DNA from: Diprion similis
Lineage: Eukaryota; Arthropoda; Insecta; Hymenoptera; Diprionidae
NCBI RefSeq assembly: GCF_021155765.1
Contig: NC_060115.1
Coordinates: 8,288,493-8,352,492, forward strand
DNA: 64,000 bases
Direction: 5' to 3'
Positions 16,123-61,123 of the stretch are shown piece by piece. Each line of letters starts with the position of its first letter. Positions within the stretch are counted from its first letter, which is position 1. The notes beneath the pieces were generated by a model. The model saw nothing but the letters and a program-made list of their open reading frames with translations. It was not told the DNA's origin and searched no databases. The translations under genes were made by a program, and so were the position numbers.

Positions 16123-17921
16123 ATGCCGATAGTTGACGAAAAAGGTGGACAGGACTCAAAACTCAAGAGGAATTTGAGGAAACGAGCGGAGAATGATGAA
16201 AGTGACGACAGTGGCTTGGCCGAAGTGAATCTGGAATCGGAAGTAATTAATGAAACGTACCGAAGAAAGGTAATCTTGTATAGATTGGCCGAAATTGAAC
16301 GTCGGGGCGAAACTAAAATTCTGCGTAACTTTGAACGAATAAAAAATGAATCCTCTCTTCCGAAAGTCAAAGGGTTATTTGCGACGCGTTCAAAACCTGT
16401 AGACCCTTCCAAAGAAAGCTTGGAATCGCTGACCGAAATGTTGCAAGAAGCTTTGCAAGGTGTGCCAGACTCAATTCTACACTTGATGACCGGATGGACA
16501 CGTCCCGGGGACTGCGGACGACCCGCCGATCAGAAACCGGATTGGCTCGACATGGAAAAGCTGCGACGAGGGCAGAAGTTCGCGGAGAATCACATGTATG
16601 CCATCTTTTTCCAGGATATGATTTCCTTGTTCATTATCTTCAGTCTCGAGGATTCGCTGAAGCCACTAATCATGACCGGAAAATCAAGCACGCCGTATAC
16701 CGCGTTCAAAAGGTAACCATAACGCCAATGTAACTCTGATTAAATCTAGGGTAGAATCAAAAACGCAGTTTCCATTCTCACCCTTCCACATGCCCCAAGA
16801 ATTTATCGATTAAAAATTTAAGGTACCTTTCAACTGGGCTGCGGGTTCGACACTGGATGACCGGTGACCTCTGGACGAAGGGGTCCGTAGCTAACATGGA
16901 CATCTCCACGGTGAGGGCGATGCATGGGACGGTGAGACGAAGACTGGAAACTTCGACTAACGAGGAAGTGGATGCTGCAGCGGAAATTGGCAAGCCCTGG
17001 TCCCCCATGCGGGAAATACTGATCAAGGATTTTTCCGAGGCTTGCGAGGCCCCCTCGATCGGCCAGTGTCCCTACGTCGTGGAGCCGGGCAGCCATGATC
17101 GTCCGAAGGGTATTAATCAAACGGAAATGGTGCTGACGCAGTGGTGCTTTGTTGGCTTGCTCGTTTCCTTCCCAGAGTCCTTTGGGGTCCATTACGCCTC
17201 TGAGGAGGACCTCGAGGCCTTTTGCCATCTCTGGAGAAGCATCGGGTACCAGTTGGGAGTCGAGGATGAGTGAGTCGGCTTCTTCTCACTTGTCGATCAC
17301 CCTGTTCTTGTGGGAAATTGCTTGATTTTGAATTAAAGGTATAACTTCTGCCGTGGCACTCTTGAGGACATTCGACGTCGAACGCACGATTATCTCGAAT
17401 CTTGGATCAAGCCCAATCTACGAAACGTCAGTCCAGAATGGGAACACATGATGAGGTGCGTCGTGACTGGACTTAGTGCTGTCGTCTCGGATACCACCTA
17501 CGAAAGTGCCCTCCTGTTCCTCACCGAAATGCTCGACCTTCCGATGCCACGACTGAACGCCTCCTTGTCGTACCTGGAATGGTGCAGGCATAAGATCAGG
17601 AAGTGAGTTTCAATTCTTACCAAACCGAAGAGGATAAAGTCAAGTGAAGATTTCAAAACCCGTGTGAAATAATGAAATGACATAGAATTATTGATTTGGT
17701 CAATGATACTTCTGGTTACTGTTTCACCGTCAAAATTTTAACCATCGATTTATCTTCATTACAGGTTTCACTTTTCCTACACGCTCAAGCTCCCAGGAAT
17801 GGCTGGATGGTTCAATAGTTTCGTGAACAAAGCCACAGAGCGTGCCGAGAACTTCACTCCCGAAGAACTGGAAGTTATACGGATAAAAATGGACAGCATA
17901 TACCCTGGTCAGGACAAATAA
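16123..17921 (+). CDS. MPAB/Lcp-type (DUF2236) oxygenase family protein, array gene 1
   Basis: Four exons: 16123-16712, 16823-17269, 17339-17602 and 17765-17921. All introns are GT-AG and the joined frame is 485 aa. The first ~105 residues are charged and probably disordered. Then come LHLMTGWTRPGDCGRP, PDWLDMEKLRRGQKF, the helical TGKSSTPYTAFKR segment, RHWMTGDLW, VRAMHGTVRRRL, GQCPYVV, TQWCFVGLL, CHLWRSIGYQLG and NFCRGTLEDIR. The PxW(V/L)D...RGQ block, VRxxH and WRxIGxxLG match the MPAB/Lcp catalytic superfamily: fungal MpaB, which cleaves a farnesyl chain, and the bacterial rubber oxygenase Lcp, a heme enzyme. The histidine in VRAMH is the likely heme ligand by analogy. No signal peptide is seen. 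The substrate is unknown. An AATAAA lies at about 18175. This is the most distant member in spacing, 7.3 kb from gene 2. Confidence 0.85.
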
Positions 17922-18939
17922 CTATGTATAAGCCTTTCGCCGAGGTCTCTGTTTTCTTTTTTTTCTATCAGGAGTCATTTGAGGCGATTTTTTGAGGAAA
18001 TCGATCACTGCTTGTCACTGTTTCGAGACTCTTCGTCAATGACGGATATTATTATAACGATATCTATGGGTACGGTCGTAAAATCAGACAATATTTCTTA
18101 GCATTTAACGAAAGAACTATTATTTTGGCTAAGGAAAAATACAATCGTGAATTCAAAATCCCTATTTTAACGAGAATAAAACGAGAAAAAAATATGGGAG
18201 TGGAAAATTATAAAATTATACAACTGAACGTCATTAAGTGGTAAAGACAAAAACATTCCAGTACCTCAATGACTCAACAGATATCAAACAGTGTGATGAA
18301 TAATCTATGACATGACGGATCGTATTCGATCACAACTAATACAATTATACCTAACGACGTTGTTAGTGCCAAAATAGAAAATAAAATGGGATCACAAAGG
18401 CATGAATCCAGCAGTGCAAAATCGAAGTACACGCGTAGTCTTGCGACACGTGGCTGACACGCAAGTGTAGAGTGAATTATTTAAGGCTTGGCGAGTCTAA
18501 TTTTGTTGTTTGGCCAAAGCGCATGCCCCAGGTCATGTGGCGTCGTCGTCGAGTAGACGAGGGTCGGTCGATTCTGACGCTGGCGATGTGGAATCCCTTT
18601 TCATCTCGTACACAACAGAGTGAAAAACGGTGATCGCCTTGCCAGAGGCTACAGTGTCGCTGCGCAGCAGCATCCGGCAACAATTCCACGCACGCACGAC
18701 ACCACCGTGTGTAAACTCGCTTTTTCCCTTGGGTAATTCGCCGAGGCTTTTCCCTCTTTCCTCTCTCGTTACCTTTCATGCATACATTTTCCGCCCCAGT
18801 CGGCGCACTGCCTCTCGAGGCTACCGTTTCAGCTCCAGCTCCGAATCGCTAAATCTCGACTCCTTAGTTGGCTGCAGTCTTTCTCTCTTCGGTTCGGTTC
18901 AGTACGATTCGGTTTTGATCCGGTGAAGTAGTATTCGCG

Positions 18940-19163
18940 ACGCTTCAGTGACGGAATCGTTCGCCTCGTCACTCCGACGTATCCGTCGCTCTGTTCAGTT
19001 CCACGTTGGTGATTCGGTGCTTTGAAAACGTGACTCTGGGCTTGGAAATCTCTCTATAAATGTCGCCGAGGAAGGAATTAAGGAGGACCGGAAGTCGAGC
19101 AAGAAGTACTTGGCTCCGTTGACCGGAAGTCGAACTGCTGTGAAAGCTCCCCGCGGTTAACCG
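18940..19163 (+). promoter_or_regulatory. Candidate promoter and untranslated first exon (possibly of array gene 2)
   Basis: Two initiator-like TTCAGT sites (about 18955 and 18995) sit in a locally GC-rich stretch. It ends in CGCGGTTAACCG followed by GTGGGTA, a possible donor near 19164. The first acceptor before gene 2's ATG is TGTTTCAG at about 25129. This pairing is an inference; the only short reading frame here (ATG at about 19060) stops after about 20 codons. Confidence 0.25.
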
Positions 19164-20526
19164 GTGGGTATAAAATATAATGTGTGCATAGTTATGGCGA
19201 TATTGTGACTGAAAAAATGATACTGCTACCGATTGCTCGTAATCAGTACTCGAATCTGTATAATACAGTGAGCTGGAGAAAAGTTTAGCCTCGACTTACG
19301 TGTTACGTTACGTTGGTATTTTGCGTCGTCACGTCGATTCAAACCTTGTGGTGTTGTGACTACCGACGAGATATCCGAAGAAATGTTGAGCCACTTAAAA
19401 AAAAATATCATGGCACGAAATAATTGCAGTGGCAGTGGATTAAATGTGAGGGAAAATTTTAAGTCGGAAGCTCTGTGCCAATAATTTTCCGAAGTTCGCA
19501 TAGCTCGGATATTTTCTGATTCGTCGGTGTTATTTTAATCCACGACGCAGCTGCCGTTGTCGTAGTGAGTAATGCGACAAAACTTTCTTTGTCATTTGTC
19601 GACTTTGCCGTAACACGATGAACGAACCGAGGCAACGACTGCGCAAAAAGTTGTACTTACTGATAGTATTGTTCATGATACTCGTACCGTTTTATTGTTG
19701 GAATTTGAACGATGATTTGGGCGCAGAAAAGCTGGTCGTGAGTGTAAATCGGAACGGCCTGACATTTTGCGTTTAACGTGAAATCTTGGATGTTCTTTAC
19801 TTTCCAAAAATTCCATAATTGTTGACGACGATATCCAATGAATAATTAAAAGTAATTGCACAACACGATGGTTACACCTGAAATGAATATAAATAAATGA
19901 ATATTTGATCTGTGACGTAATAAATTTGAAATATTTAGTCATCGTATAGAGTTAAAAGCATGTGCTCGGGGCATTTAAAATTCGTGTAAACATCTAAACA
20001 AATTTCAATCTAAAATTTAATGAAGCTGAGAGAAAATACGCCCGCGTCCTTCACTGGAGTACCTGCAGCTACAAAATACACACTCATTCGTTTCGGTAAA
20101 ATCTCGACATTCGAATTTCAAGTTCCAGTGAGCGGTTTTTTCGAGAATGGTACCGTTGCCCGTGATTCTTAAATTTTTCTTGCCGATTCGAGAGAGCGTC
20201 AGACGCGCAAATTCACTCGGATTACTTTATCGCATTGCGATTCAACGAACGATTACTTTGATCAATGCGAGAATGAACCCAGATTGTATATAAATGTCAG
20301 CTCGGCGTGTTTTACCGGCTTTATCAGCTGCTGTTCGTGTAATCAGAGAATCGGTTTGGAATTAGCACCTGTCACACGACCCAAGGCCATTACTTCACAT
20401 TGCATAATGCAATCACTCGCAGATGAAATCACTGTCATTTCCGAAGCACATAATACGTGTGTATTCCTGCATGAAATTCATTTCGCAATCCAATCATTGA
20501 ATCGGTTGCGTTCGTGCTGTGACAAG

Positions 20527-20552
20527 AAAGAAGAAGAAGAAGAAGAAAAAAA
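20527..20552. repeat. (GAA)n purine tract
   Basis: Tandem AAG/GAA units running into an A-rich run on the plus strand. Confidence 0.8.
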
Positions 20553-20872
20553 ATTGCAACTGCGATATTTGCTAAAAAGTAGTCTAAACGTTGATAATAA
20601 ATTTGACGCATCGTTCCTTCCTATTCGCGAAAAATTAGACCTTAATTTTACCATTAGCAGCCTGAGTAAATATTATTATTTGCCTGGATAGTTTATAAGT
20701 TTTAAAACTCTTGACCGCCGTGTGTTGGCGGTGTCGAAAAGCGAAGGTCAGCTCGGCAATTAGCAACTATTCCGCATAATAAAATCCAGTTTTTTTTTAC
20801 TACACGAATTTACAGTCCATTCGCCAAGTTCACACAGCACTATTATGGCTCAGCAACCGGTTTCCACGTATG

Positions 20873-20890
20873 TGTGTGTGTGTGTGTGTA
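20873..20890. repeat. (TG)n dinucleotide tract
   Basis: Eight to nine TG units, uninterrupted. Confidence 0.85.
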
Positions 20891-21851
20891 ATAATCTTGA
20901 CGTACGTACCTGCCTAAAGTGCACACCGCATACACACTTACCTGCTTAGTCGATGTAAAATTTTTCTCCTCGTTTTACGTTTTACATTTTGCGTCAACAC
21001 ATATGCGGCTCTGGTTGACATTCCTCGCTAGCTCATAGTCATTAAATTATGCAGTCTTATTTTCACGTGACACCAACGACACGCACGCATGCACGTGTGA
21101 GTGGTTCGTGTCTCTAGATCAAATACGAGGCCGGATCTAGCACAATTAGACACGGTGTAATATCTTGTTTATTAATGTTTATAACAACAAGCTAGAAATT
21201 TAATTGTACCTTTAATATTATGCAGGAACATCGTTGCTGACTCCCATGCATTAGTGAACGTTACATAATTTACGAAGACGTTGTTCGATCTCGTGATCTA
21301 CGAAGGATTAAATTTGACAAAAAACGAATAGTATCGAGGCGGAATTTTTCATCGGCTCATTTCCACTCGTGCATTTTTACCGACGACTTTGCAATAGCTT
21401 GCAAACTTCCATAAGCTCGTTATCCGTGGCTTATCCAACCGTGTCGTAAGTCATACAAATTACCGGGCGTGGTTTGCATAGGAAAAAATGAAAAACCGTG
21501 TAAAAGTACGTTATGCAAATGGCGAAAATTGCAGGCTGCAAAGACCGTGCCGAGAAGAAGAAAGAAAAGTGGGAAAAAATAAGAAGGAAAGAAAACCAGG
21601 CAACGCGTCTCGTATAACTCTTGAAGGTGAATACATCGCCTTCGGATTCATGATACACATCTCGCCAGTTGATGTCAGTCTCTGCAAGAATTGCTGTAAC
21701 CTTCGACGAGGCTAATGTCCATGGGTTCCGACCGTCGTCGGAGCTTCAGGCCGATCCGTTTGTTCCTCGCATGTTAGTCTGAGATGAACTTCTGTTCGGT
21801 GAGTTCCGCGATACGACCAGAGTTTGCAGCTTCCCGTTTTATCCGAAGTAG

Positions 21852-22208
21852 TTAGTCGTCACAGAGGGACGGTGAGTTTTTGAAAAACTTATAATCGTCG
21901 TTGGACCAACTCCAATTCATCGTTTTCCTCCTATGGATTTTCCGCCGCGAGGCTGCACGACGATTCGCCTTTTGTGCAAGTATATAAAGGAGCTGACGAA
22001 CTGCGTATAATAACGCGGAAACGGGACCACCGTCACGAAACCGCGTAAACCGAGCTACGGCATGATCGACTAGAGTAAGGAGTGAAAAAGTTGCGACCCA
22101 GTTTCCGGTTGGATTATAAAACAGTTCTTTTACATCCTCGGCCGTGACACAATTATCTCGAAGAATATAGAAAATGAAGAAGAGGATTAAAGAGGCTGGG
22201 AGTGGCAT
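21852..22208 (-). CDS. Candidate small secreted protein (118 aa), unrecognised
   Basis: A single open frame from ATG at 22208 to a stop at 21852. The N-terminus is a textbook secretion signal: a hydrophobic core (LPASLILFFIFYIL), then RDNCVTA followed by ED as a plausible cleavage site. The mature part includes VKELFYNPTGNWVATFSLL and a basic stretch near residues 80-95 (KANRRAASRRKIHRRK), followed by WSWSNDDYKFFKN. Only one cysteine would remain after cleavage, near the C-terminus. The ATG follows an A-rich leader, the usual insect context. I do not recognise the family. It lies antisense in the interval between array genes 1 and 2. It could equally be chance, since one frame of this length is not rare here; the signal peptide is the main argument. 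Confidence 0.35.
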   Translation of the reverse strand: MPLPASLILFFIFYILRDNCVTAEDVKELFYNPTGNWVATFSLLTLVDHAVARFTRFRDGGPVSALLYAVRQLLYILAQKANRRAASRRKIHRRKTMNWSWSNDDYKFFKNSPSLCDD

Positions 22209-23404: not shown

Positions 23405-23428
23405 ATTTTTCCCTCCTCTTCTTGTCCT

Positions 23429-23460
<32 letters not shown>

Positions 23461-23466
23461 TTTTTA
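23405..23466. repeat. (TTC)n pyrimidine tract
   Basis: Long T/C-only run with many TTC and CTT units; one strand is all pyrimidine. Confidence 0.85.
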
Positions 23467-23603
23467 GGATAAATGGCGAAAGGTCATCGCCACTCCTTTT
23501 TGCGTCTCGCTCTAGCCAAAAACTCGTTTCTGTGTTAATCTACGCACTAGCGTAGAGAACTCGCACGATTAAAGTGTGCCAAAAAATAAATAAACAAATA
23601 AAA

Positions 23604-23604
<1 letters not shown>

Positions 23605-23635
<31 letters not shown>
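23605..23635. repeat. Poly(A) run of about 31
   Basis: Uninterrupted A tract preceded by AATAAATAAAC-type A-rich DNA. It could be the tail of an old retroinsertion, but nothing recognisable precedes it. Confidence 0.85.
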
Positions 23636-23636
<1 letters not shown>

Positions 23637-25233: not shown

Positions 25234-28200
25234 ATGAAAATGGACAGAGACCCATCGGACGACTCGAAGGCGGAAAGTGAATCCTCGGACTTCGAGGAGC
25301 TCGGAGACGTCGCCTCGTCGAAGAGGATATTCTCGTCGTCGGATGGCGAACGAACGGAGATCGACGACAGCGACAACGACAGCGGGTTCGTGGGAGTTTC
25401 CCAGGGATCCTTGGACCGCCTCGACACCGTAACACCGGAAGTGCCCTGCGGCGAGACGAGCGGAAGTAGCCCCTACGACAGGGATGCGATCCTGTACGAT
25501 TTGGCGAGTTCCGATTCTTCGTGGCAGGCCAGATTTATCGCGGGTGTTGAGCGGATGAAAAATGGCGGTGTGAAATCGGCCGATTCTCTTGTCAATTTCG
25601 AGCAGGATGTTGCAAATTTGACCGAGGAATGCCGGGAATCGATGATGGAGAAGCTGCGAGAGGCGTCGAAAGCCATTCCGGATTCGATGCTGCACTTGTG
25701 TACCGGCAGAAATCGGCCCGGCGATTGCGGCCGACCATCCGATGTCAAACCCGAATGGCTGGACATGGAGAAACTGAGAAGAGGACAGAAATTCGCACAG
25801 GAACACATGTTTCCCATATACTTCTCCGAGATGCTCTCCCTCTTCGCTCTCTTCAGCTTCGAGGATGGACTCAAACCGCTCATTATGACTGGGAGGTCCA
25901 GCACCCCGTTCACAGCATTCAAAAGGTAATAAAATCAGCCCGGAACGCTATTTTTTAATACCTTACTTCCCTCGATTTTATGCAGATAGTGTGCTCGTTG
26001 AAGATGCAAAAAAGTGTTGCAGAGTTTGAGAGTCTTTCTATGGTCTGTAGGACAAGTATGACATTTTGTCGAAACACTTTGTCAGAATTACCTTACACGG
26101 TTCCTTCAATATTAGTTACTATTCAATATCGAACACCGATTTCGAAAAAATTTTGCAAGTTTTTATTTTTGTATCCTGCAGGGCTTTTGTCTAATCTTTC
26201 TGTGATTTGACAAAGATTCAAATCGCTCAGAGCCTGGCCTAAATAAATATATATGTATATATATATTTGGGTATGTATAAGTTGAAATCGAATATATTCA
26301 ATTGAATATATTAAGAGATCTCTGGCCTGAGCGAATTGATTGAGTTTGATCGAATCTTATTTCAATCGCAAGTATAACGTAGCTGAATCAAACGAATGAG
26401 TTAACTCTGTTTAAGCATTGTCAGCTTCACAGTGTCCAACACGATACGTGTCAAGGAGAAAAAAAATCTCTCCGTTAAATTCTAATTTGATGGTAAATTT
26501 ATGACGTAATAAATGAATGAGAGATGTTTCGAATAGTACATTATCGTTGATCTCTAAAATATGGAAAAATTCTGTTTTAAGATTATTAGTCAAGTTTAGT
26601 GAAAGAATCGCAGAAAGGTGAAAAGTAAATCGAAAAAACATGTGATTAGAGATAATTTGGAAAATTTGTGGCGATTTGAATACAGAAACAATCATCAAGG
26701 ATTATGGCTGAAAATCATTCTAATCGGGTTTCCGACGTCCAAAAATTTCAGATACTTGTCGACTGGACTGCGGATTCGGCATTGGTACACGGAGGACCTT
26801 TGGGCCAAAGGATCACCCGCGAGGAAGGACATCTTGACCGTGAGGATGATGCACGGTGCCGCAAAACGGAGACTCGACGCTTCGACAAATGCAGAAATAG
26901 ACGCGGCGGCAAAAATTCCAAACGCATGCTGCCCGTCAAGGGAAATGCTGCTGAAGGACTTTGCCGAGACTTGTGAGGTCCCCGTGATCGGCCAGTGTCC
27001 TTACTTGCTCGAGCGGAACAACCCTGATCGACAAAAGGGTATAAATCAGACCGAAATGGCTCTGACGCAGTGGGGCTTTGTCGGCTTGATAATTTCCTAC
27101 CCTAAGTGCCTGGGTGTTCATTACGCGACCGACGAGGACCTCGAGGCCTTCTGCCACTTGTGGAGGAGTATCGGGTACCAGCTGGGAATGGAGGACGAGT
27201 GAGTAGTAGCGAAAGACTTTTCGTTCTTTTCGATTCGACGTGAAGTTAGCAGCATACGTGGCTGAGCAATATGGCGACGAGAACTGAGTCGTGAGCGGAT
27301 CGTTTTGGGGTTATTACGCGTACACGAAAGTAGGAAGAACTCAGTGCAAGCTGTTTATGGCTTAGTTTTTGATCCTGGAATCGATACACTGCAAAAAATA
27401 CGAGGAAAAATATCATTAAAAATTAAATATGGCGCAGTTTGAGCGACGCGTCGATTCGCCACCAGATGTCACACCGCCACGTTCTTAATGCGAACTTTTT
27501 TTTTTACTGCAGGTACAACTTCTGTCGTGGAACCTTGGAAGAGATTCGACAACGGAGTAGCGATTTTCTCGAGACTTGGGTCAAGCCTAATTTACGAATC
27601 ATCACTCCCGAGTGGGAACACATGATGAGGTGCATATTCACCGGGGTTAGCGTGTATCTACCCGGCGCCACTTACGAAACTTCTCTTCTTTACCTCACCG
27701 AAATTCTCAATCTCCAGATGCCACGGCTGTACGCTTCGCTGTCGTATAAAGATTGGATCAATCACAATCTCAGCAAGTAGGTTCCGGAGTTTGATGGTCT
27801 CACGATTAGAAAATAGATTTTTCGATAGAATGGAATCAATATCGATACCTTCACTACGATTTATTGTCTGCGAAATCACATTAGTTTTCCAAAAAGGATA
27901 TTTCGAGGTGAAAACTCATTCCAAAATTCCATTCGCAAGACGCGGATTATCTTTTCTTCTGAGACACTCTGTGTCATGAGTTACAAATTCTTAGTACCGA
28001 TTTTAAGATGTTTGTCAGATTTCGCAAGCCGTTTATAAACCAATTTCTTCCCTCGAAAATTTCCCCGCAGAATCTGTTCTAGTCCATAAAAGAATACAAA
28101 TTCTGATTATCTTCTCGGTTTCTTGCAGGTCCCTCTTCTACTGCACGATCAAACTGCCGGGAATGAAGAGTTTGTTCAATGCTCTGTTGAACCGAACTCT

Positions 28201-28318
28201 AGATCGAGCGGAAAAATACACAAGTGAGGAAATCGACGCGATAAGAATCAAACTCTCCAATATTCCTGGGTTTCCAGATGCAGAGATGGTGGAGAATCAG
28301 GTCGCTACTGATTCTTGA
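25234..28318 (+). CDS. MPAB/Lcp-type (DUF2236) oxygenase family protein, array gene 2 (longest member)
   Basis: Exons 25234-25925, 26752-27198, 27513-27776 and 28129-28318; 530 aa. The N-terminal ~75 residues are strongly acidic and serine-rich (DSKAESESSDFEELGDV, DDSDNDSGFVG), so probably disordered and phosphorylatable. The shared motif YDRDAILYDLA then leads into the family core: LHLCTGRNRPGDCGRP, PEWLDMEKLRRGQKF, STPFTAFKR, RHWYTEDLW, VRMMHGAAKRRL, GQCPYLL, TQWGFVGLI, CHLWRSIGYQLG and NFCRGTLEEIR. A C-terminal extension of about 15-18 residues (GFPDAEMVENQ) is unique in the array. Its introns (826, 314 and 352 bp) are much longer than in the other members. The VRxxH histidine is present, so a heme-dependent oxygenase activity is plausible by family. 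Start choice: the second ATG two codons in (MKM) is equally possible. AATAAA lies at about 28861. Confidence 0.85.
26291..26312. repeat. Perfect 22-bp AT-rich palindrome in intron 1 of array gene 2
   Basis: Half-site AATATATTCAA followed by its exact reverse complement, with no spacer. It is next to (TA)n DNA and may be only a simple-sequence by-product. Confidence 0.7.
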
Positions 28319-30389
28319 CATGTGACAGATCAAACTGAAACCGCGATGCCTGAAGATACTATAGGAAATAGTAAAATCGTTGATTTCGTTTTGAGCTCGG
28401 AACACGAGTCATATATTCTGTAGAGCACGGATGGACCTTATCACGAAAGAATTATTCCGTACGCTGGGCGTTACTCCGATAAATTATAATACGTATAATT
28501 GTAACAAAGTATGATATACTAAATACGCATATATTTAATAAGGTTAAGACAAAATGTATTATATATAGTATAGCGTGATAACGGAAACGACAAATCATAA
28601 ACTTGAATCAAACTAAGCAATGTAAAACTGTGATATAATTAGCAAGGATTGTAAAGCAACACAAAGCAATGAATTAGTACAATACAATATATAAAGTTGC
28701 AGAATAACGTTAACGCGGGGATTTGAATCACAGGAACAAATCATTATTCGTAATTAAGAAACGTTTGATAAACAGAAATATTTTATTCTGTATTCAAGTA
28801 ATTCCAACATCAAATCCCTTCGTGACCTGTATTTTGAGATATAATTTCTCTTTTTTCTTAAATAAAACTGATAACAAGTGTGTTTGTATGCTTACGTGCC
28901 TTTGCGTAATAATTCATCGTTAATGGAACCAGACGTACCTTAACTTGAAGTTATGAACAAAATCATAATAATAATAATTCCGCATTTCAAGCAAGGTTGA
29001 AACGAGTAAAAAGTTGTTGTCACCTTGTGGCGAAGAGTCATAAATCCACGAAACGAATGCCGCAGGTGCTTACGGTAATCAAGAAAATCCGAACTTAGAA
29101 CTAGACAATAGCATCGGGAGAATGATTCTCCTATAATGTCTCTACCATGTTGTATAATGTTGAGTTCACCTATTACATTGACCCAGAATAATTACGTATG
29201 CGTAGCATTTGTCACATTCATTCTAATACAAGTCACAAATGGATCTGCATTTAGTTAAGACGCATGAAAGGATCACGTGGCGAGTTGTTCAAAAATAGCG
29301 TATTATGTACCAATAAGGACTGAAAGCGGGCTTTTTGATACCGTCAAATATCATTCATCTATCGTTCCAAAGGTAGTTGTCGTCGTCGAGAGTATCCGGA
29401 TGACTTGATGCAGCGTTCCAATCTTTGCCAAAACTTATCTTTATTTTTCTTCAAAAATCAAAAATCCGACTTCTGTTGATGATTTTTGTACGATTTTTAT
29501 TTTATGTGCTCTTTCGATTGCTCACAGACCGGTGACTGTCTGTTTAGACTCAAAATGCTTCCTGGATCCGTATCAGTCGGGTTTTTGTCAATGGATCTAC
29601 AGTACTCGGTCCACCTTACGTTTAAAAAGCTGTTGACGATCGGATGATAACTATAATATTATTATTATGTTTCTATTTATTTTTATATTTCTGCATTTTT
29701 ATATCTATTTATTTGGATCTATTTACGCGTCTAACTTTCGATAGTTTTGTTTTCTCTTTTCTTCTACCATCTTAGTTCAGGTTCAATTTTAATTTTCTTG
29801 CTTCCTCACTTTTTAGCTGACAAGTTATTCTCTATTTTGTCTACGTACCGATAAATTCCCGTCCGAAGAGACTTGTCACTCTACTAGTTCGTGTGAGTAC
29901 CTGAGCATAGCCAACTATACAACGGATTTTTTTTATTATTATGGTATCGTATGGTGTAAAGGTAAGTTGACTACTGCGCGAATTTGAAGTTTGCTCCGTG
30001 GGGCGTGGGGTCAACTGGAGTAAGTGCCTGAGGTCATGGGAACTGTTTGGTTGATTAGCTCATGCATTCAGCCCCACTTTACATTGCCTCGATTAAATAG
30101 TTGCGTTTACCAAACAATCAAGCACTTGTTACTTGCCATTGTACTCGGTCAATTCTCAGTGCTGATCATTAACAATAAACCGTCAAGACTTGGGTGGAAT
30201 TCGACCAGTAAGCGTGATTGGTAAGTCGTTTCATTTAATACAGAAAAGCAAGATCTTCGTTGGGAAGCGGTGCAATGTCGATCCATGGTGGCGTGAAGGA
30301 CGGTGATTTTTCAGGGATCTCAGAAATCAGGATAATATCGCGACACTCCGACAGCTAATGAGAGAGAGGAGACGAACGGGATTGACGCG
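28319..30389. other. 2.1-kb interval between array genes 2 and 3
   Basis: It contains the 3' UTR of gene 2 and AT-rich DNA with no recognised gene. From about 29967 it becomes the 5' flank of gene 3, nearly identical to the flank of gene 4 (from about 34026). Within that flank, GATTG/GTAAGTC at 30221 and TTTTTCAG ending at 30314 form a likely 94-bp 5' UTR intron, which would remove two upstream ATGs. Confidence 0.5.
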
Positions 30390-30720
30390 ATGGAATCGTC
30401 GACAGCAACCGAAACGTACGACAGAGAGGCGATACTCCGCAAGCTCGCAGGTGACGAGTGCTTGAGAAAATATCTTCTGAACAGCGCCAGAGAATCGCGG
30501 AAGACCGAGACTCCGGAGACGAAGGCATTCGAGGAATCCGACGGCGAATGCCTGGAATCGGTTGTCGAAGAGCTGCGAGAATTTTTAAAGCTAGTACCGG
30601 ACCGACTGCTGCACATGATGACAGGATTGTCTCGTCCCGGAGACTGCGGGAGACCCGCCGACCAAAAGCCCGACTGGCTCGACATGGAAAAGCTACGACG
30701 AGGTCAGAAATTTGCTCGGG
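29967..30720 (+). repeat. Near-identical paralogous block (copy A; copy B at about 34026-34773)
   Basis: The 5' flank, putative UTR intron and first ~110 codons of gene 3 match gene 4 almost base for base at an offset of 4053. From about 30210 to 30718 I see a single mismatch (codon 5, ACA versus GCA), with a few more toward the left edge. Beyond the GCTCGGGA at about 30720 the match drops abruptly to ordinary paralogue divergence, still inside exon 1. Confidence 0.9.
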
Positions 30721-32011
30721 ACCACAAATTCTCACTATACATCGCCGACATGTTTTCCGTAATGTGTGCATACACCTTTCACGACACACTCAAGCTGATA
30801 ATTCTAACTGGGCAGTCCAGCACACCGTTTACGGCCTTTAAAAGGTATATTATCCTTGTATCCTAGTCACCGCTGTAAGCATTGACGCTGAAAAGTTTTT
30901 TTAAACATCAGACAAAAATCTTGTTCGTAATATTGATTTCCGTATTTTTGAAACCCTAAGGTACAAGTCCGTGATGGTGAAGATTCAACACTGGTACTCT
31001 GACGATCCCTGGTCAAAGGGAACGAAAGCTTGGAAGGACATTTTGACTGTCAGAGCGTTGCATGTTGCTGCGAAACGTAGATTGAACGTTTCGACAAACG
31101 AAGAAATAGACAATGCCACAAAAATTCCAAACATGTCGTGTCCGACGCATGATATATTGCTAAAAGATTTTTCCGATGCTTGTGAGGTTCCTGCGGTCGG
31201 TCAGTGTCCTTTTCTGGTGAAGCCGACCGATCCTGATCGACCCAAGAGTTTCAATCAATTTGAAGCGTCGTTTGCGCAGTGGCAGTTCGTCTGGCTGGCG
31301 ATCTGTTACCCTGAACACCTCGGAATTCATAACGCTACGGACGAAGACTTCGAAGCTTATTGTCATTTGTGGAGAAGCATCGGCTACCAGTTAGGAGTGG
31401 AAGACGAGTAAGTAAAGCAAAAATACGTGCGATGCATCGATCTCTTTTTCGCGTTAACCACATTGAACCCGAAACTTTTTTTAGGTACAACTTTTGCCGT
31501 GGCTCTCTCGCCGAAATTCGACAATGTGGTCGCGATTTTATTGAGTTGTGGGTGAAGCCTCATCTGCGAGAAGTGATGCCTGAGTGGGAGCACATGATGA
31601 GATGCATATTCGATGGTTTCAAACGCGCTTCTCCGTACATCAACTTCGAAACTTCCCTTCTCTTCGTTTGCGAAATTCTTGATCTGAAAATGCCGCGGCT
31701 CTACTCGTCGCTGTCTTACAAAGCCTGGATCAATCACTATCTCATGAAGTTAGTTCCAATTCTTTTAATTCATTTTCTACTATCTACAGAGAACGCAGAT
31801 CAGAATGATACTGAGAGTCATCCCTACCGATTTCACGAGTCACCATATCCTAACGCACTTTTCTTTTTATTTCAGGTCTTTGTTTTACTACGGAATGAAA
31901 CTGCCGAGTGTTGTCGATTTCATTAATACCAAGCTGCAACGAACTTTGGATCAGAGCGAAAGACTCAGCCCGGCGTCGTTGGAGAAATTACGAATTAAGT
32001 TAGGAGGATAG
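30390..32011 (+). CDS. MPAB/Lcp-type (DUF2236) oxygenase family protein, array gene 3
   Basis: Exons 30390-30844, 30961-31407, 31485-31748 and 31876-32011; 433 aa. The short N-terminus begins with ETYDREAILRKLAG, the motif shared across the array. It is followed by LHMMTGLSRPGDCGRP, PDWLDMEKLRRGQKF, DHKFSLYIADMFS, STPFTAFKR, QHWYSDDPW, VRALHVAAKRRL, GQCPFLV, CHLWRSIGYQLG, NFCRGSLAEIR and a last exon of FYYGMKLPSVVDFI. The segment FNQFEASFAQWQFVWLAICYP departs from the NQTEM..TQWGFVGL form of genes 1, 2 and 5. Because it lies within the presumed catalytic helix bundle, substrate preference may differ. No signal peptide is seen. AATAAA is at 32206. All four exons are intact. Confidence 0.87.
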
Positions 32012-34442
32012 TTTGGGAGTTACCTGCTTAATTTTTTAGGAAGATGATAGTTGTATTCACACATTGGGAATAAGGGTGTAATTATTATAATCTGTGATAT
32101 CAGCGATGACAACGGAATGGTTTAGGGTGGGCACACATCACGATACTTAAGTTTATAATATTCAAAGCAACATAAGAGTTGGTTAGATAATTACAGAAAT
32201 GAAGAAATAAACTCGAGTCAAAGGAATTACCACGTCGATTAGTCAAATATTGTCGATTAAATTCACAAGCGTTAAATCAGTCGAGTTTGTTAGAAGAGGT
32301 AGCAATACACAATTAGTCAACAAGAATAGTTGGCAAGATTTTTGATAGAATAAAGAGTAAAAAAGACAAGGTGAAACTAACAAAGGAATTCTGATTCATA
32401 ATTAACGAGAGAATATAAAAGTATGAGAGTGAAGGATTTCAAAAAGGGTTCGCAAGATAAAGAAAAACACTAAACACACCTGATTACGATAAGCAGAACT
32501 CGAATTAGCAGTGGAATACGATATTACAAGAAACATGAAAAATATAACAGGTAACAAGCAATATGAAATTAGTAATTCGAATACTCATTACGCTCGGATG
32601 TACTCCAAGGAATTCGATTTACGAAGCAGATCTAGCATAAAATTACAAGAAAATCCTAGAAAAAGGCGTACAAAAGCAGAAGTCTTACCTTAGCCGGTGA
32701 CTCAGGCACGCAGACACTGATTTTAAATTAAATCAAACTTATCGGCAACAGAAGAAAGTTTTATAGGAAGGTAATTCAAGGGAAGAAAGAAGCTAACCGA
32801 TAGAGCAAACGGTAGAACGATAAAGGAGATGATGACGGTAGAACAAGCGATAGAAATAGTAATAAGGAAGAAGGAAAGTAAAATTAACTGAAAAAAACCT
32901 AAATTAACGAGAGTATAAGTAACAGCGAAGCTGTCTCCTGATGGGTTGAGGCTTGCAACCCGAAACCAGTCAATAACGTGGCCAGAGATGACTCGGAAAT
33001 AAAGTCTTATTTGCATAAAAGGAATAAAAGTCGATTATTCCCGTGACTTTATATGAAAAAACAAGAATGAGGATTAGAGGATGAAATATGGAACGAAATA
33101 AATGAATCCAAACACTCAATTGGGCAAAAAAAAATACTTGCAATTTATTGGATTGTAGGGGAAAAGCCGAGGATGCATAAAAAATCCTTGTTAGTACAGT
33201 AATGAGCTTGTGTCAAGAGTTTACGAGGTGTTAGTGTACGATCAATGGTTGTGTCTCGTATCTGGAGAGCTGCCGTGAAATTCGGGGGCCTGAAGGGGTG
33301 AATCTACTGTTTGTAATTGGAGTGAAGAGGAACAGAGATGAGGAGAATAAGGATATCTAAGAGGACCCGCGGAGATGTTATCGTTAGCGTAGACCCGATC
33401 AGACTGAACTCTCCGAGCGTCGAATCCCGGTAATTTATCTATTCTTCCAACGATCAGCGCCATCTTTCGGGATCAACGACGAAAGGATTGATTCGGTCTG
33501 ACGAGACGTGTATTTGTGGGCCTACGTTTGATAGTGACTCTGCTTTGATAGCACTAGACATACCACAACTCAGAATGATGAGTAAATTCTTAAATCTCAA
33601 ACGGTACACTGATTGCGAATTGGTACCAGCGAGAATTTCAGCACCCTGGCATTTGCTCTTAGAACCACGGTGATGTGGTTTTTTTTTTATCCTGGGCTCT
33701 TTTTCTCCCACTTGGGAATTTTCAAGAATTTAAAAAAAATTTAGATAAACAATTTCAGCTGCCTACTTGATATTTCAATAGTTCGCATCATCAAATTTTC
33801 ATGTAGTTAAACAGTAGGAATTGTTTAGCAACGAAAAATTCCCGAGACATTTAATTAGATGCATAGAACATGTGACGAGCGCAGGTAAATTACTATAAAT
33901 TAGGTAGTACTCTGCTTATTTCCTCATTCTCCCAAGTATAACGATTCGGTATACGTACACGTGTATCAATCGTAATTATGTATTCACTAAGGTGAAAAAA
34001 GTTACGGTAAGTCTTTTCGACTAGTGTTGACTACTGCGCAAGTTTGAAGTTTGCTCCGTAGGGTCAATTAGAGGAAGTGCCTGAGGTCATGGGAACTGTT
34101 TGATCGGTTAGCTCATGCATTCAGCCCCACTTTACATTGCTTCGATTAAATAGTTGCGTTTGCCAAACAATCAAGCACTTGTTACTTGCCATTGTGCTCC
34201 GTCAATTCTCAGTGCTGATCATTAACAATAAACCGTCAAGACTTGGGTGGAATTCGACCAGTAAGCGTGATTGGTAAGTCGTTTCATTTAATACAGAAAA
34301 GCAAGATCTTCGTTGGGAAGCGGTGCAATGTCGATCCATGGTGGCGTGAAGGACGGTGATTTTTCAGGGATCTCAGAAATCAGGATAATATCGCGACACT
34401 CCGACAGCTAATGAGAGAGAGGAGACGAACGGGATTGACGCG
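32012..34442. other. 2.4-kb interval between array genes 3 and 4
   Basis: From about 32.17 to 33.16 kb the plus strand is markedly A/G-rich and ends in a hairpin plus CGAAAC motif (32925-32970), then AATAAAG; this resembles the tail of a degraded transposable element. From about 33240 to 33680 the DNA is less AT-rich, with short open frames on both strands but no recognised product. From about 34026 it is the duplicated 5' flank of gene 4, including the copy of the likely UTR intron (34274-34367). Confidence 0.4.
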
Positions 34443-34773
34443 ATGGAATCGTCGGCAGCAACCGAAACGTACGACAGAGAGGCGATACTCCGCAAGCTCG
34501 CAGGTGACGAGTGCTTGAGAAAATATCTTCTGAACAGCGCCAGAGAATCGCGGAAGACCGAGACTCCGGAGACGAAGGCATTCGAGGAATCCGACGGCGA
34601 ATGCCTGGAATCGGTTGTCGAAGAGCTGCGAGAATTTTTAAAGCTAGTACCGGACCGACTGCTGCACATGATGACAGGATTGTCTCGTCCCGGAGACTGC
34701 GGGAGACCCGCCGACCAAAAGCCCGACTGGCTCGACATGGAAAAGCTACGACGAGGTCAGAAATTTGCTCGGG
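34026..34773 (+). repeat. Near-identical paralogous block (copy B; copy A at about 29967-30720)
   Basis: Partner of the block at gene 3. It covers 5' flank, putative UTR intron and about 110 codons of exon 1. The left edge differs by small indels, while the inner ~500 bp differ at one site. Confidence 0.9.
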
Positions 34774-36089
34774 AACACAGTTTCTCACTATACTTTGGCG
34801 AGATGGCTTCCCTGACGTGCACGTACTCCTTTCCGGACACACTCAAGCTGTTGATTCTGACTGGAAAGTCCAACACGCGTTTTTTGGCCTTCAAAAGGTA
34901 CTCCTAGTTATGGCCTCTAAGCACTGTCGGCGTTTCTTCAGTCAACGCTGTCACTGAACAGTTTTCTTAATAAAGAAGACAAAAATTATGTCCATAATAT
35001 TGATTCCCGATTCTTGAAAACTTCAAGGTGGGCATCAACTGCGATACGGTTTCACCATTGGTACTGTTACGATCCCTGGTCCAAAGGAACGAAAGCTTGG
35101 AAGGACATTTTGGCCGTTAGAGCGTCCCACGCTGCTGTAAAACGCAGAGTGGATGCTTCTACAAATGAAGAAACGGACGACGCTGCGAAAATTCCAAACA
35201 TGTCGTGTCCGTCGCGTGATATATTGCTGAAAGATTTCTCCAATGCTTGTGAAGTTCCTGGGGTTGGCCAGTGTCCTTTTCTGGTGAAGCCGAACGATCC
35301 TGATCGACCCAAGGGTCTCAATCAATTTGAAATGTCGTTCACGCAGTGGCAACTTGTTGGATTGGTCGTCTGCTACCCACAGCATTTCGGAATTCATAAC
35401 GCTACGGACGAAGACCTTGAAGCCTATTGTCATTTGTGGAGAAGCATCGGCTACCAGCTGGGAACGGAAGATGAGTGAGTCGAGCAAAAATTTATATGAT
35501 GCATTATTCGCGTTTTTTCGTCAGCAATGGTAAGCCCGCAACTTATTTTTCAGATTCAACTTTTGCCGTGGCAATCTCGATGAAATTCGAAAATTGAGTC
35601 ATGATTTTCTCGAAATCTGGGTGAAGCCTAATTTGCGAGAAGTGACCCCTGAGTGGGAGCACATGACGAGATGTGTGTTCGATGGTTTCAAACACCTTTT
35701 GCCGTACATCGGCTTCGAAACTACCGTTCTCTTCGTTTGCGAAATTCTTGATCTGAAAATGCCGCGGCTCTACTCGTCGTTGTCTTATAAAGCCTGGATT
35801 AGCCACTGTCTTATGAAGTGAGTCCAAATCGTTCCAATCCATTATTTTTTCGCAGTAGAAAAGACAGATCAGCATTCAAATGAAATTAATCTTTATCATT
35901 ATCACAAGTCACAATATCTGATTGTGAGTTAATGTTTCTCGTTATTTCAGATATTTCCTTTACTATGGGATGAAACTCCCGAGGGTTGTCGATTTCATTA
36001 ATACGAAGCTGCAACGATTCTTGGATATAGGCGAAAGACTCAGCCCCTCGGCTTGGGAAAAGATACGAATTAAAGTAGAAGGATGTTAA
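34443..36089 (+). CDS. MPAB/Lcp-type (DUF2236) oxygenase family protein, array gene 4
   Basis: Exons 34443-34897, 35028-35474, 35554-35817 and 35951-36089; 434 aa. Residues 1-109 equal gene 3 except at residue 5. After that it diverges: EHSFSLYFGEMASL, the segment GKSNTRFLAFKR in place of STPFTAFKR, RFHHWYCYDPW, VRASHAAVKRRV, GQCPFLV, TQWQLVGLVVCYP, CHLWRSIGYQLG and NFCRGNLDEIR. The VRxxH histidine is kept, but the residue before it is Ser where the others have Met or Leu, and the conserved STP before AFKR has become NTR. Exons and splice sites are intact. The last exon (YFLYYGMKLPRVVDFI) is closest to gene 3. AATAAA lies at about 36327. The gene is probably functional, with possibly altered pocket chemistry. 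Confidence 0.87.
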
Positions 36090-37556
36090 TTTGATTACCC
36101 GATTAGTTTTGGGCGAAGTTCATTGTATTGTTACTTAATTAAGAATAAGGGTACACCTATCATAGTCAATAAGACCAGCGCTGACAATGAAAACTCTTCA
36201 GGTGGACACACAATTGACAATACCATAATTCATAAAATTCAAATCTACCTAATAGTAAATTTTATCCTGTTAGTTACTTAAGGTTAATTAAAAAAGTGAC
36301 TATCTAATTGACATGGAATTTCGGTTAATAAATGGATGTAAGGGAAATATACGTATAGTTAATCATGCAAGAATAAATATTAAGTTTTTGTTACGGTTAT
36401 TAAGACTCGGGTGAAAATGGAAATCATGCAGAATCGTTGTGATACTAATCCTTTTGCAAAACCTGGATCAATCAGTGTCTTATAAAGTAAGCTCGAATTG
36501 TGTCATCCTGTTATTTTCTCACTAGAGGAGAGACAGAGGAGAATCGAAGTGAAAATGTAAATAAAATTTGAGAACTAACCGGAGAATCACCTGTTTGATT
36601 TTGGATGAAAGTGCCAATTTTGTCAAAAGATAGGATGTAGGATTTCCAGCATTACATTACGATTGCACATATTTCACGTGAATTTTCACAAATTCAGATG
36701 CTGCGATCATAAAATAAAGAGATATCGTGATGTTCACATGAGTCAAATCATCCTGGCTGCGAGGTCAATGAAACAGCTGATTAGTCGCTGACACATTAGC
36801 ATAAGTAAGTAGGATAAATAGCAAACTACATCAGTTAGATCACAGCAGCGTATGAGCGAATGAAAAAGTGTGTCGCAACATATAATGATACAAGTTAATT
36901 ACGTCTCGGAGCAGCTGTAATTAAAGTAAGTATCACAATTTTATCATACAGCTTCCCTGAGAAAAAGTTTTTGCACTTGCTTTACGACATGAAGCTTGAT
37001 AATTTTCCAATTTCTTGTATCTTATAATTCGGGACTAAAATGTCACGTGAGAAATGAGAATGACATTTGAGGGTGAATATCTGTATAACTAGAAAACTCC
37101 ATTTCTTCAATCGTAGCAATTTATGTTTTTTGTATGTCCAGATACGCTTCTTATCGTTCCTCTTGGAAACGTCGTAAGATTGTGTTCTGCATAGAAAGTA
37201 AATATAGTGACAATGGGCATGTATACGAGATGAATCATTATCACGAGTTCGCGATATTTTGCTTATCTGTGTACGATTTCACCGGATGTTTCCAATGGGC
37301 GTATCCTATGAATAGATCTGGTTATCGCTGGAAAACAACCAAGTGTACTTACGCTTAGTCACTAGAATTCGCCGAAGCAGAAAACTATTTTTTCTACTCA
37401 ACGAACTAATTTTGTCATTCACTGGCAAAGATGATAATTTTTTTCTATGTTTGTAACTGATAGGGATAAAGACCTCGTAAAATTTTTACCCGCAATGTAT
37501 CTCCACCACATTTAGGCTGCAGTGTAACTTTTGAAGAGCGTAATGGGCATGAAAAG
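36090..37556. other. Interval between array genes 4 and 5, with a gene relic and a possible promoter
   Basis: It contains the 3' UTR of gene 4 and the exon relic at 36458-36615. Upstream of gene 5 there is GATAAATA at 36813, TCAGTT at 36831, a possible UTR donor AAA/GTAAGT at 36926 and an acceptor TTTAG at 37515. The promoter reading is weak because the TATA-to-initiator spacing is only about 20 bp. Confidence 0.4.
36458..36615 (+). pseudogene. Relic of a sixth oxygenase gene (end of exon 3 and intron 3)
   Basis: The sequence translates KTWINQCLIK and is directly followed by GTAAGC. In the intact genes the same place reads KAWINHYLMK (gene 3) or KAWISHCLMK (gene 4), followed by the exon 3 donor. 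Similarity to gene 4's third intron continues (TTATTTTCTCAC..TAGAGGAGAGACAGA versus TTATTTTTTCGC..TAGAAAAGACAGA). A weak match to the 3' UTR after the stop follows (GATTTTGGATGAAAGT versus TAGTTTTGGGCGAAGT). Exon 4 and everything 5' of this fragment are missing. Confidence 0.7.
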
Positions 37557-39211
37557 ATGGATGAAATTCCGGGAACTCAATCTTCAGAATCAAACGAAAC
37601 GTATGACAGAGAGACAATTCTTCTGAACTTAGCGACCGACGAACATCTGAGAACGTATATCTTGAAGCAAGAAAATCCCGAGATTTCAATGACTCGCAGG
37701 ACATCGAGACCAACCGAAAATGAATGTCGAGAAACGGTTACCGAAGAGTTGCGAAAAGTTCTGATCGCTGTTCCAGACACCATGCTTCACCTTTTAACAG
37801 GGTGGACTAAACCTGCGGACTGCGGGCGACCCGCTGATCAAAAGCCCGACTGGCTCGATATGGAAAAGCTTCGAAGAGGCCAGAAATTCGCTCAGGATCA
37901 CAGTTTCTCAATTTACATTGCCGAGATCCTCTCCTGGTTCGCAACGTACACTTTTCAAAGCTCTCTCAATCCAGTGATTATAACAGGAAAAACTAGCTCG
38001 CCGTTCGCAGCTTTCAAAAGGTATCTGTATGGGGTAGCGAGTTGAAGTTTGTCTTGGAAGGCTGTGATCCTTAGAATAAATTTTGAATCTTTAGTCTGGA
38101 ATTTTTAACCACAATTAAGGTTCTTGTCTACGTCTCTGCGGATTCGGCATTGGTGCACTCAGGATTTATGGTCGAAGGAGACAGCAGCTTGGAAGGACAT
38201 TTTGGCTGTGAGAAGGATGCATGCGGTAGTAAAACGCAGGATGGACACTTTTACGAAAGAAGACAGAGACGCCGCAGCTAAGATACCCAAGCCTTTTTTC
38301 ATCTCGCGTAAAATATTGCTTGAAGATTTTCCCGAGGCCTGTAAGACCCCAGCAATCGGCCAGTGTCCATTATTGATAGATCAGAACAGTCCTGATCCAC
38401 CCAGGAGTTTCAATCAGACCGACATGGCCATCACGCAGTGGGGCTTTGTCGGTTTGATAGTCTCCTACCCTGAAGCTTTTGGGGTTCATTACGCGACGGA
38501 TGAAGACCTCGAAGCCTATTGCCACTTATGGAGAAGCATCAGTTATCAATTGGGAATGGAAGACGAGTGAGTCTGAGTAAATTCATTCAGAGCTCATCAC
38601 TCTATTTTTTCAGTTCAATATCAATCTTGCGATTAACTGTGTGCATTTTTTTCGCAGCTTCAATTTTTGCCGTGGTACTCTTAAGGACATCCGAAAACGG
38701 AGTAACGACTTCATCGAAGCATGGGTGAAGCCTCATCTGCGAGAGGTTACCCCGGAGTGGGAACATATGCTGAGATGCATATTCAGTAGTCTCAACCTTT
38801 TCATGCCCAATATCACGTTTGAAACAGGTCTTCTCCAATTTACGGATATTATAAATTTGAAAATGCCGCGGCTCTATTCTTCGCTTTCTTATAAGCAATG
38901 GATCGGCTACTATGTCACAAAGTAAGCTTGCATTTTTAAAGACCGTTGTTCTGTTTTATGATAGGTGAAAATACATCCAGTCAAGATTTCTTATTATTGG
39001 AGTAAATGCCGGTGAGGTATCAAAATTGAATTGATTTTTTTTTTTATTTTATCGGTAAATTTTTCTTCATTTCAGGTACTTTTTTTATTACGCAACCAAA
39101 TTACCAGGAGTAATAAAACTTGCGAATACTTTTCTGAACCGATCACTCGATGACTGTCAAAGAATGTCCCCTCAGGAGATGGAAGCGATACGAATCAAGT
39201 TGGAGAAGTAG
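37557..39211 (+). CDS. MPAB/Lcp-type (DUF2236) oxygenase family protein, array gene 5
   Basis: Exons 37557-38020, 38120-38566, 38658-38921 and 39076-39211; 436 aa. It starts MDEIPGTQSSESNETYDRE, then LHLLTGWTKPADCGRP (KPAD replaces the RPGD of the other four), PDWLDMEKLRRGQKF, GKTSSPFAAFKR, RHWCTQDLW, VRRMHAVVKRRM, GQCPLLI, TQWGFVGLI, CHLWRSISYQLG (Ser replaces the Gly of SIGY), NFCRGTLKDIR and a final exon FYYATKLPGVIKLA. The core and the candidate heme histidine are conserved. It is more divergent than genes 3 and 4 from each other, so it is an older duplicate, but all splice sites and the frame are intact. AATAAA lies at about 39250. Confidence 0.86.
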
Positions 39212-61021: not shown

Positions 61022-61123
61022 GTAAGATATTGCGTCTATTAAATAAATTAATGAACTTGTAATATCAATTAATTCCTCGTTAATTTCATGCAACGTTTTT
61101 TCATTCCGGTACGATATATGTAT

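What the first reader, a model, noticed from the sequence alone, without database searches (positions are those of the whole stretch)
16123..39211. Five-gene tandem array of MPAB/Lcp-superfamily oxygenases in an insect genome
Seen: five intact head-to-tail genes share PxWLDMEKLRRGQKF, VRxxHxxxKRR, TQWxFVGL-type and CHLWRSIxYQLG blocks. Known: the PxW(V/L)D..RGQ, VRxxH and WRxIGxxLG pattern belongs to the MPAB_Lcp_cat (ex-DUF2236) family of fungal MpaB and bacterial Lcp, heme enzymes that cleave isoprenoid chains. Inferred: a lineage-specific enzyme expansion, perhaps for terpenoid, isoprenoid or cuticular-lipid oxidation. To my knowledge, animal members of this family have no established function.
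Basis: partly seen in the sequence, partly recalled or inferred. Interest (0 to 1): 0.85.

Follow-up and report, generated by a model that had tools for sequence, protein, structure and literature searches.

The report
Five-gene array of Lcp-like heme oxygenases
An animal, probably insect, genome carries a row of five intact duplicated genes related to the bacterial and fungal heme enzymes that cut carbon-carbon double bonds in rubber and other isoprenoids; what they do in animals is unknown, but key heme-site residues are kept and one copy has lost two of the pocket residues.

Summary
Five intact head-to-tail genes lie at 16123-39211, each with four coding exons, GT-AG phase-2 introns and no internal stop, under purifying selection. 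They belong to the MPAB_Lcp_cat (ex-DUF2236) superfamily: two of five pass Pfam's cut-off, three fall just below it, and all five score 34-50 bits on a profile of five bacterial Lcp-like proteins, against at most 3.6 for 1000 shuffles.

The heme-ligand histidine and distal arginine are kept in 5 of 5, the distal threonine in 4 of 5. The lysine that caps Lcp's heme is serine in all five. By hydropathy they lack a signal peptide or membrane anchor. They carry a 40-48-residue insert that three paralogues elsewhere in the genome lack. Copy G3 has lost both distal-pocket threonines, while its 5' region is homogenised with G4.

Three seeds find eight members in the genome, five here. Most likely these are soluble heme oxygenases cleaving C=C bonds of isoprenoid or unsaturated lipid substrates; heme binding, catalysis and substrate are inferred. 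The only structure prediction possible (exon 2) failed (pLDDT 43). Species and spread across insects could not be tested.

The parts
16123..17921 (+). G1, 485 aa; exons 16123-16712, 16823-17269, 17339-17602, 17765-17921
   Evidence: PF09995 29.9 bits, over the cut-off of 23
25234..28318 (+). G2, 530 aa; exons 25234-25925, 26752-27198, 27513-27776, 28129-28318
   Evidence: PF09995 19.9 bits, below the cut-off
30390..32011 (+). G3, 433 aa; exons 30390-30844, 30961-31407, 31485-31748, 31876-32011; the two distal-pocket Thr positions are Val and Ala
   Evidence: PF09995 18.3 bits, below the cut-off
34443..36089 (+). G4, 434 aa; exons 34443-34897, 35028-35474, 35554-35817, 35951-36089
   Evidence: PF09995 16.9 bits, below the cut-off
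37557..39211 (+). G5, 436 aa; exons 37557-38020, 38120-38566, 38658-38921, 39076-39211
   Evidence: PF09995 27.0 bits, over the cut-off
26753..26764 (+). G2 Y-L-S-T after the splice-split Arg231 (LcpK30 R164): S = K167 position, T235 = T168 position
26843..26854 (+). G2 R262-M-M-H265: positions of LcpK30 R195 and proximal heme ligand H198
26873..27016 (+). Array-specific insert (G2 residues 272-319) with two cysteines invariant in the five genes; same place in all five; absent from the three paralogues
30971..30973 (+). G3 V156 in place of the distal Thr (LcpK30 T168)
29966..30690 (+). Copy A of a block shared with 34026-34743 (inner ends approximate): about 420 bases before the start codon and the 5' part of exon 1, 90-100% identical per 100 columns; beyond it the duplicated unit is mostly 64-91% identical
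34026..34743 (+). Copy B of the homogenised block, in G4

Best explanation
The array encodes five soluble, intracellular b-type heme proteins of the MPAB_Lcp superfamily (globin-type helical core). G1, G2, G4 and G5 most likely bind O2 at a five-coordinate heme held by the VRxxH histidine, with the distal Arg and Thr positioning oxygen, and cleave a C=C bond of a small isoprenoid or unsaturated lipid into carbonyl products, as Lcp and MpaB do. Tandem duplication let the residues around the heme pocket and substrate tunnel diverge, so the copies probably differ in substrate. G3 probably still binds heme but has little or altered activity, because both distal-pocket threonines are gone. Shown here: gene structure, family membership, residue conservation, purifying selection, the insert and the homogenised block. 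Inferred: heme binding, oxygen chemistry, substrate class, cytosolic location.
For: PF09995 is the best Pfam match of 5 of 5 and of two of two paralogue stretches scanned (27.2 bits over, 16.6 below the cut-off). Bacterial Lcp-like profile: 34.3-50.5 bits for 5 of 5, at most 3.6 for 1000 shuffled copies. Profile-profile probability 98.6% over 210 columns. The five-gene profile matches LcpK30 structures 5o1m/5o1l at E 0.009-0.011, the only PDB sequences better than E 2. R164 and H198 equivalents in 5 of 5 array genes and 3 of 3 paralogues; T168 equivalent in 4 of 5 and 3 of 3. In LcpK30, H198 is the proximal ligand, H198A and R164A are inactive and T168A keeps 2% (passages). MpaB cleaves a farnesyl chain (passages); Nro1, an MpaB-family protein, shows absorption suggesting b-type heme and is proposed to cleave main-chain C=C bonds (passages). 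Pairwise dN/dS 0.10-0.35. No hydrophobic 19-mer above 1.54 Kyte-Doolittle.
Against: Three of five proteins are below Pfam's own cut-off. G2 alone has no significant match to LcpK30 (E 0.17), and the five-gene profile scores the five bacterial proteins at only 5.8-20.8 bits. The exon-2 structure prediction was of no use. The Glu148 position of LcpK30 is not conserved across the array and its alignment is uncertain. Lys167 is absent in 5 of 5. No expression, heme or activity data.
Confidence: 0.5

Rival explanations
1. Heme proteins of the same fold with another chemistry or none: O2/NO/CO sensing, peroxidase-like or hydroxylase activity. Most array copies, not only G3, would not cleave C=C bonds.
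For: The LcpK30 paper describes a 3/3 globin core similar to globin-coupled sensors (passages). The Lcp distal lysine is absent in all five and Glu148 is not conserved. G3 keeps the heme His and shows dN/dS 0.35 against G4 despite two pocket losses.
Against: The distal Arg/Thr pair, which in LcpK30 is needed for activity but not for heme content, is kept in 4 of 5 array genes and 3 of 3 paralogues.
Confidence: 0.27
2. Detoxification enzymes for dietary terpenoids or other xenobiotics, expanded in step with diet like P450 or GST clusters.
For: Tandem array with a diverged segment before the distal Arg (mean identity 0.46 over G2 residues 189-220, against 0.71 for residues 327-380). A mosquito gene labelled STRK3/rubber oxygenase appears in a differential-expression table of larvae resistant to Lysinibacillus sphaericus, beside P450 and GST genes (one passage).
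Against: Diet and species are unknown; the mosquito gene's kinship with this array was not tested; exon 4 is as variable (0.43) as that segment.
Confidence: 0.15
3. Recent horizontal transfer from bacteria.
For: The family is common in bacteria: 13 of 80 genomes drawn from one phylum match PF09995.
Against: The eight genes in this genome share an intron at the same place and phase and form one branch (100/99) apart from the five bacterial rows. The GTDB scan found no true relative; its one hit is an antisense frame, but it used only two short patterns and so reaches close relatives only.
Confidence: 0.03
4. Pseudogenes or an assembly artefact.
For: G3 and G4 share a near-identical block.
Against: Five open reading frames with intact splice sites, dN/dS well below 1, 50-80% identity and different introns and spacers.
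Confidence: 0.01

Closest known systems
LcpK30, latex clearing protein of Streptomyces sp. K30 (PDB 5o1l, 5o1m)
   Same: VRxxH-type heme-ligand helix, distal Arg-x-x-x-Thr, Q-x-[DE]-M block, xHxW helix
   Different: Lcp is secreted and has distal Lys167 and Glu148 (passages); the array has Ser at the lysine, variable residues near Glu148, no evident signal peptide, and a 40-48-residue insert in the region where Lcp has its short L-helix
MpaB / MpaB' of mycophenolic acid biosynthesis (Penicillium)
   Same: Named by the same Pfam model; its reaction is oxidative cleavage of a farnesyl chain (passages)
   Different: MpaB is ER-bound (passages); the array proteins have no clear membrane segment by hydropathy. 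The MpaB sequence was not compared directly here
Bacterial MpaB-family oxygenases such as Nro1 of Gordonia
   Same: Absorption suggesting b-type heme and proposed C=C cleavage (passages)
   Different: 323 aa, membrane-bound, Arg/Lys/Arg at the distal positions (passages) rather than Arg/Ser/Thr
Three paralogues in the same genome (C9 and C4 loci)
   Same: Arg, Thr and VRxKH kept in 3 of 3; one intron shared in place and phase
   Different: No insert; a different neighbouring intron; 27-47% identity to the array over the matched stretches

Membership tests
MPAB_Lcp_cat superfamily (PF09995, ex-DUF2236) | Match to the Pfam model above the gathering cut-off | tested here: inconclusive
   2 of 5 above 23 bits (29.9, 27.0); 3 of 5 below (19.9, 18.3, 16.9); profile comparison with bacterial members is strong
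MPAB_Lcp_cat superfamily (PF09995, ex-DUF2236) | Near-invariant Arg (R164) and His (H198) | tested here: met
   5 of 5 array genes and 3 of 3 paralogues
MPAB_Lcp_cat superfamily (PF09995, ex-DUF2236) | Near-invariant Thr (T168) | tested here: inconclusive
   Met in G1, G2, G4, G5 and 3 of 3 paralogues; not met in G3 (Val)
MPAB_Lcp_cat superfamily (PF09995, ex-DUF2236) | Lcp/MpaB all-helical heme fold | tested here: inconclusive
   Exon 2 alone gave an all-helical model with mean pLDDT 43, pTM 0.37, too poor to search; the full spliced protein was not sent
MPAB_Lcp_cat superfamily (PF09995, ex-DUF2236) | b-type heme | not testable with these tools
   Needs protein and spectra
Latex clearing protein (Lcp) proper | Distal heme ligand Lys167 | tested here: not met
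   Ser in 5 of 5
Latex clearing protein (Lcp) proper | Glu148 in the substrate tunnel | tested here: inconclusive
   Likely aligned residue is E, E, H, P, Q in G1-G5; the alignment can be off by one
Latex clearing protein (Lcp) proper | Secreted enzyme | tested here: not met
   By hydropathy only: highest 8-residue mean in the first 35 residues is -0.24, 0.41, 0.86, 0.86, 1.6 in G1-G5; each first Met follows an in-frame stop within 30 codons. No signal-peptide predictor was available
MpaB (ER-bound farnesyl-cleaving oxygenase) | Membrane anchor | tested here: not met
   Best 19-residue hydropathy 1.02-1.54 in the five proteins; no dedicated predictor was available

The most novel reading that the evidence does not exclude
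Animals have a family of soluble heme enzymes that perform an ozonolysis-like C=C cleavage without Lcp's lysine cap. In this lineage a tandem array with a new cysteine-bearing lid has diversified the substrate tunnel, and one copy (G3) has been turned into a non-cleaving heme protein driven by the same promoter region as its sister.
Probability: 0.2. Interest if true: 0.75.

Novelty: new member of a known kind. Interest (0 to 1): 0.42.

Why it matters
If the inferred chemistry holds, animals would have their own enzymes for cutting C=C bonds of isoprenoids or unsaturated lipids to aldehydes and ketones, a route to volatiles, hormones or breakdown products that none of the papers seen here (listings and passages) describes for animals. 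The array gives a natural series: four copies with the oxygenase Arg/Thr/His set, one with the heme ligand but without the pocket threonines. That makes function testable by direct comparison.

Tried and rejected
Own-genome search with the Pfam family itself found nothing; I presume a limit of its first look at short exons, since a protein query found 21 matches. The GTDB scan with the five-gene alignment gave one locus from 118 pattern matches, rejected because the match lies in a frame antisense to an 883-aa ORF that looks like an FtsK-type DNA translocase (label recalled). Structure prediction of exon 2 was too poor to use, so no fold search was run. The E-value of G2 alone against the PDB is not significant and is not used as support. 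The chance figure of 0.002 for both G3 changes falling on the two named pocket sites was computed after seeing them and is only a guide. Horizontal transfer and pseudogenes were considered and set aside (see rivals). The species could not be found from the assembly size. One search chose wrong frames for the bacterial loci and was replaced. Of the 18 bacterial ORFs I used five (L051, L054, L055, L056, L057, from three genomes), chosen by eye for Lcp-like motifs and length, in the profile and tree; the other 13 were dropped before those counts.
Full report
OBSERVATION. The window holds five intact genes in tandem on the + strand at 16123-39211. For each gene, a search of splice offsets around visible exon ends gave one open model with GT-AG introns. 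Each has four coding exons and three introns, all phase 2. Gaps between genes are 7312, 2071, 2431 and 1467 bases. Identity is 50-59% between copies and 80% for G3/G4. Pairwise dN/dS (Nei-Gojobori) is 0.10-0.35, though dS exceeds 1 in nine of ten pairs and is then near saturation. No other copy or fragment was seen in the window at E below 1.

FAMILY. Pfam-A gives MPAB_Lcp_cat (PF09995) as the best match for all five; two pass the curated cut-off of 23 bits and three do not. Of two paralogue stretches scanned, one passes (27.2) and one does not (16.6). The profile of the five finds only LcpK30 structures, at E near 0.01, below E 2 in the PDB; G2 alone is not significant (E 0.17). In one phylum, 13 of 80 genomes gave 18 PF09995 matches; five of these 18 ORFs, from three genomes and chosen by eye as Lcp-like, made a bacterial profile. 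Against it the five array proteins score 50.5, 46.0, 44.2, 38.8 and 34.3 bits, while the best of 1000 shuffled copies scores 3.6; the other way round, the five-gene profile scores the five bacterial proteins at 20.8, 14.7, 9.9, 7.8 and 5.8 bits. hhalign of eight proteins of this genome against the five bacterial ones gives 98.6% over 210 columns. Two of the bacterial five match LcpK30 clearly (E 7.5e-11 and 4.6e-12). I take superfamily membership as established.

RESIDUES. The review of rubber oxygenases names R164, T168 and H198 of LcpK30 as near invariant, with H198 the proximal heme ligand and K167 the distal one (passages). The structure paper reports that H198A and R164A are inactive, T168A keeps 2%, E148 variants keep 2-20%, and that E148-T230, R195 and R202 take part in stabilising contacts (passages). 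With LcpK30 shown in register, the array keeps R164 in 5 of 5, H198 in 5 of 5, R195 in 5 of 5, R202 as Arg (1) or Lys (4), and H259 in 5 of 5; H232 is Trp in 5 of 5. T168 and T230 are kept in 4 of 5: G3 has Val and Ala. K167 is Ser in 5 of 5. Among 185 sites invariant in G1, G2 and G5, G3 alone changed nine and G4 alone five; two of the nine are these pocket threonines. The residue likely at E148 is E, E, H, P, Q in G1 to G5, with an alignment that may be off by one.

ARRAY-SPECIFIC FEATURES. Between the heme-His helix and the Q-x-[DE]-M helix the array proteins have 40-48 more residues than the five bacterial proteins and the three paralogues. The stretch lies inside exon 2, so it is not a missed intron, and holds two cysteines invariant in 5 of 5. 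In LcpK30 the stretch after H198 holds a short L-helix (residues 209-214) that restricts access to the heme (passages), so the insert may be a lid; that is inference. Hydropathy shows no signal peptide and no clear membrane helix. So the proteins look intracellular and soluble, unlike secreted Lcp and ER-bound MpaB. No dedicated predictor was available.

GENOME CONTEXT. The window lies in C11 of a 269-Mb, 60-contig assembly. Three different seeds recover the same eight genes: five here, two on C4 about 6 kb apart, one on C9. These are lower bounds by the tool's own statement. The eight share one intron at the same place and phase; the next intron upstream differs between the array and the other three. 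A tree of 13 rows groups the eight apart from the bacterial five (100/99) and the five array genes together with modest support (81/90). The genome-contig scan, limited to two short patterns, found no true bacterial relative.

G3 AND G4. A duplicated unit of about 2.2 kb (29966-32179 and 34026-36256) is uneven. From about 420 bases upstream of the start codon into exon 1 the copies are 90-100% identical per 100 columns; the first 109 codons hold no synonymous change in 76 synonymous sites and one nonsynonymous change, whereas the remaining 324 codons have dS 0.50 and dN 0.16. A conversion tract or nested partial duplication explains this. The result is two genes with the same promoter-proximal DNA and N-terminus but diverged catalytic cores, one of them without the pocket threonines.

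MECHANISM. The most likely reading is a b-type heme oxygenase that cleaves a C=C bond of an isoprenoid or unsaturated lipid. MpaB cleaves a farnesyl chain (passages), and the MpaB-family protein Nro1 shows absorption suggesting b-type heme and is proposed to cleave main-chain C=C bonds (passages). Without the lysine the heme would be five-coordinate at rest; that is a prediction. The five copies may differ in substrate because the segment before the distal Arg is among the least conserved (mean identity 0.46), though exon 4 is equally variable (0.43) and the place of that segment on a tunnel is taken from Lcp, not shown here. Heme binding, activity and substrate remain untested.

FOLD TEST. 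I sent only contiguous translations, so exon 2 of the five genes was predicted; mean pLDDT 43 and pTM 0.37, all helical, unusable. The test is open.

LITERATURE. Ten searches of the open-access library were used (one search was for the species). In the titles and abstract starts listed I saw no paper on an animal member's function; two searches listed only 25 of 5,778 and 15 of 46 papers. Passages were read in seven papers, none in full. Two mentions of animal members were seen in passages: a coral protein-domain list and a mosquito gene labelled STRK3/rubber oxygenase in a differential-expression table. Subscription papers are not held, so a function in print elsewhere is not excluded.

LIMITS. 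The species is unknown. Lineage-specific expansion was not tested across insects. The paralogue sequences used are core stretches with one to three wrong residues at one junction each.

Noticed in passing
window 48600-48657: About 11.6 copies of CCTAA, i.e. an interstitial TTAGG-type repeat.
   Followed up: no
window about 12434-12831, +: Pieces in different frames resembling the C-terminal domain of glyceraldehyde-3-phosphate dehydrogenase (three sub-threshold PF02800 matches, best E 0.001); looks like a decayed copy.
   Followed up: partly
window 1725-2234, -: Exon with TNFR cysteine-rich repeats (PF00020, 56 bits), probably a TNF-receptor gene.
   Followed up: no
window 60767-61039, +: Exon with a weak, sub-threshold HSP20/alpha-crystallin match (14.7 bits, tied with an unrelated family), possibly a small heat-shock protein.
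   Followed up: no
window 32001-34000: Marked strand asymmetry (GC skew 0.17, AT skew 0.165) in the spacer between G3 and G4; no tandem repeat reported there.
   Followed up: partly
window 3532-3969: Imperfect inverted repeat: 3532-3841 is self-complementary at 67%, and 3532-3659 pairs with 3849-3969 at 77%.
   Followed up: no
L024 and L025 (C4 about 13.872-13.879 Mb), L023 (C9 about 0.757 Mb): Three further MPAB_Lcp-like genes outside the array, without the insert.
   Followed up: partly
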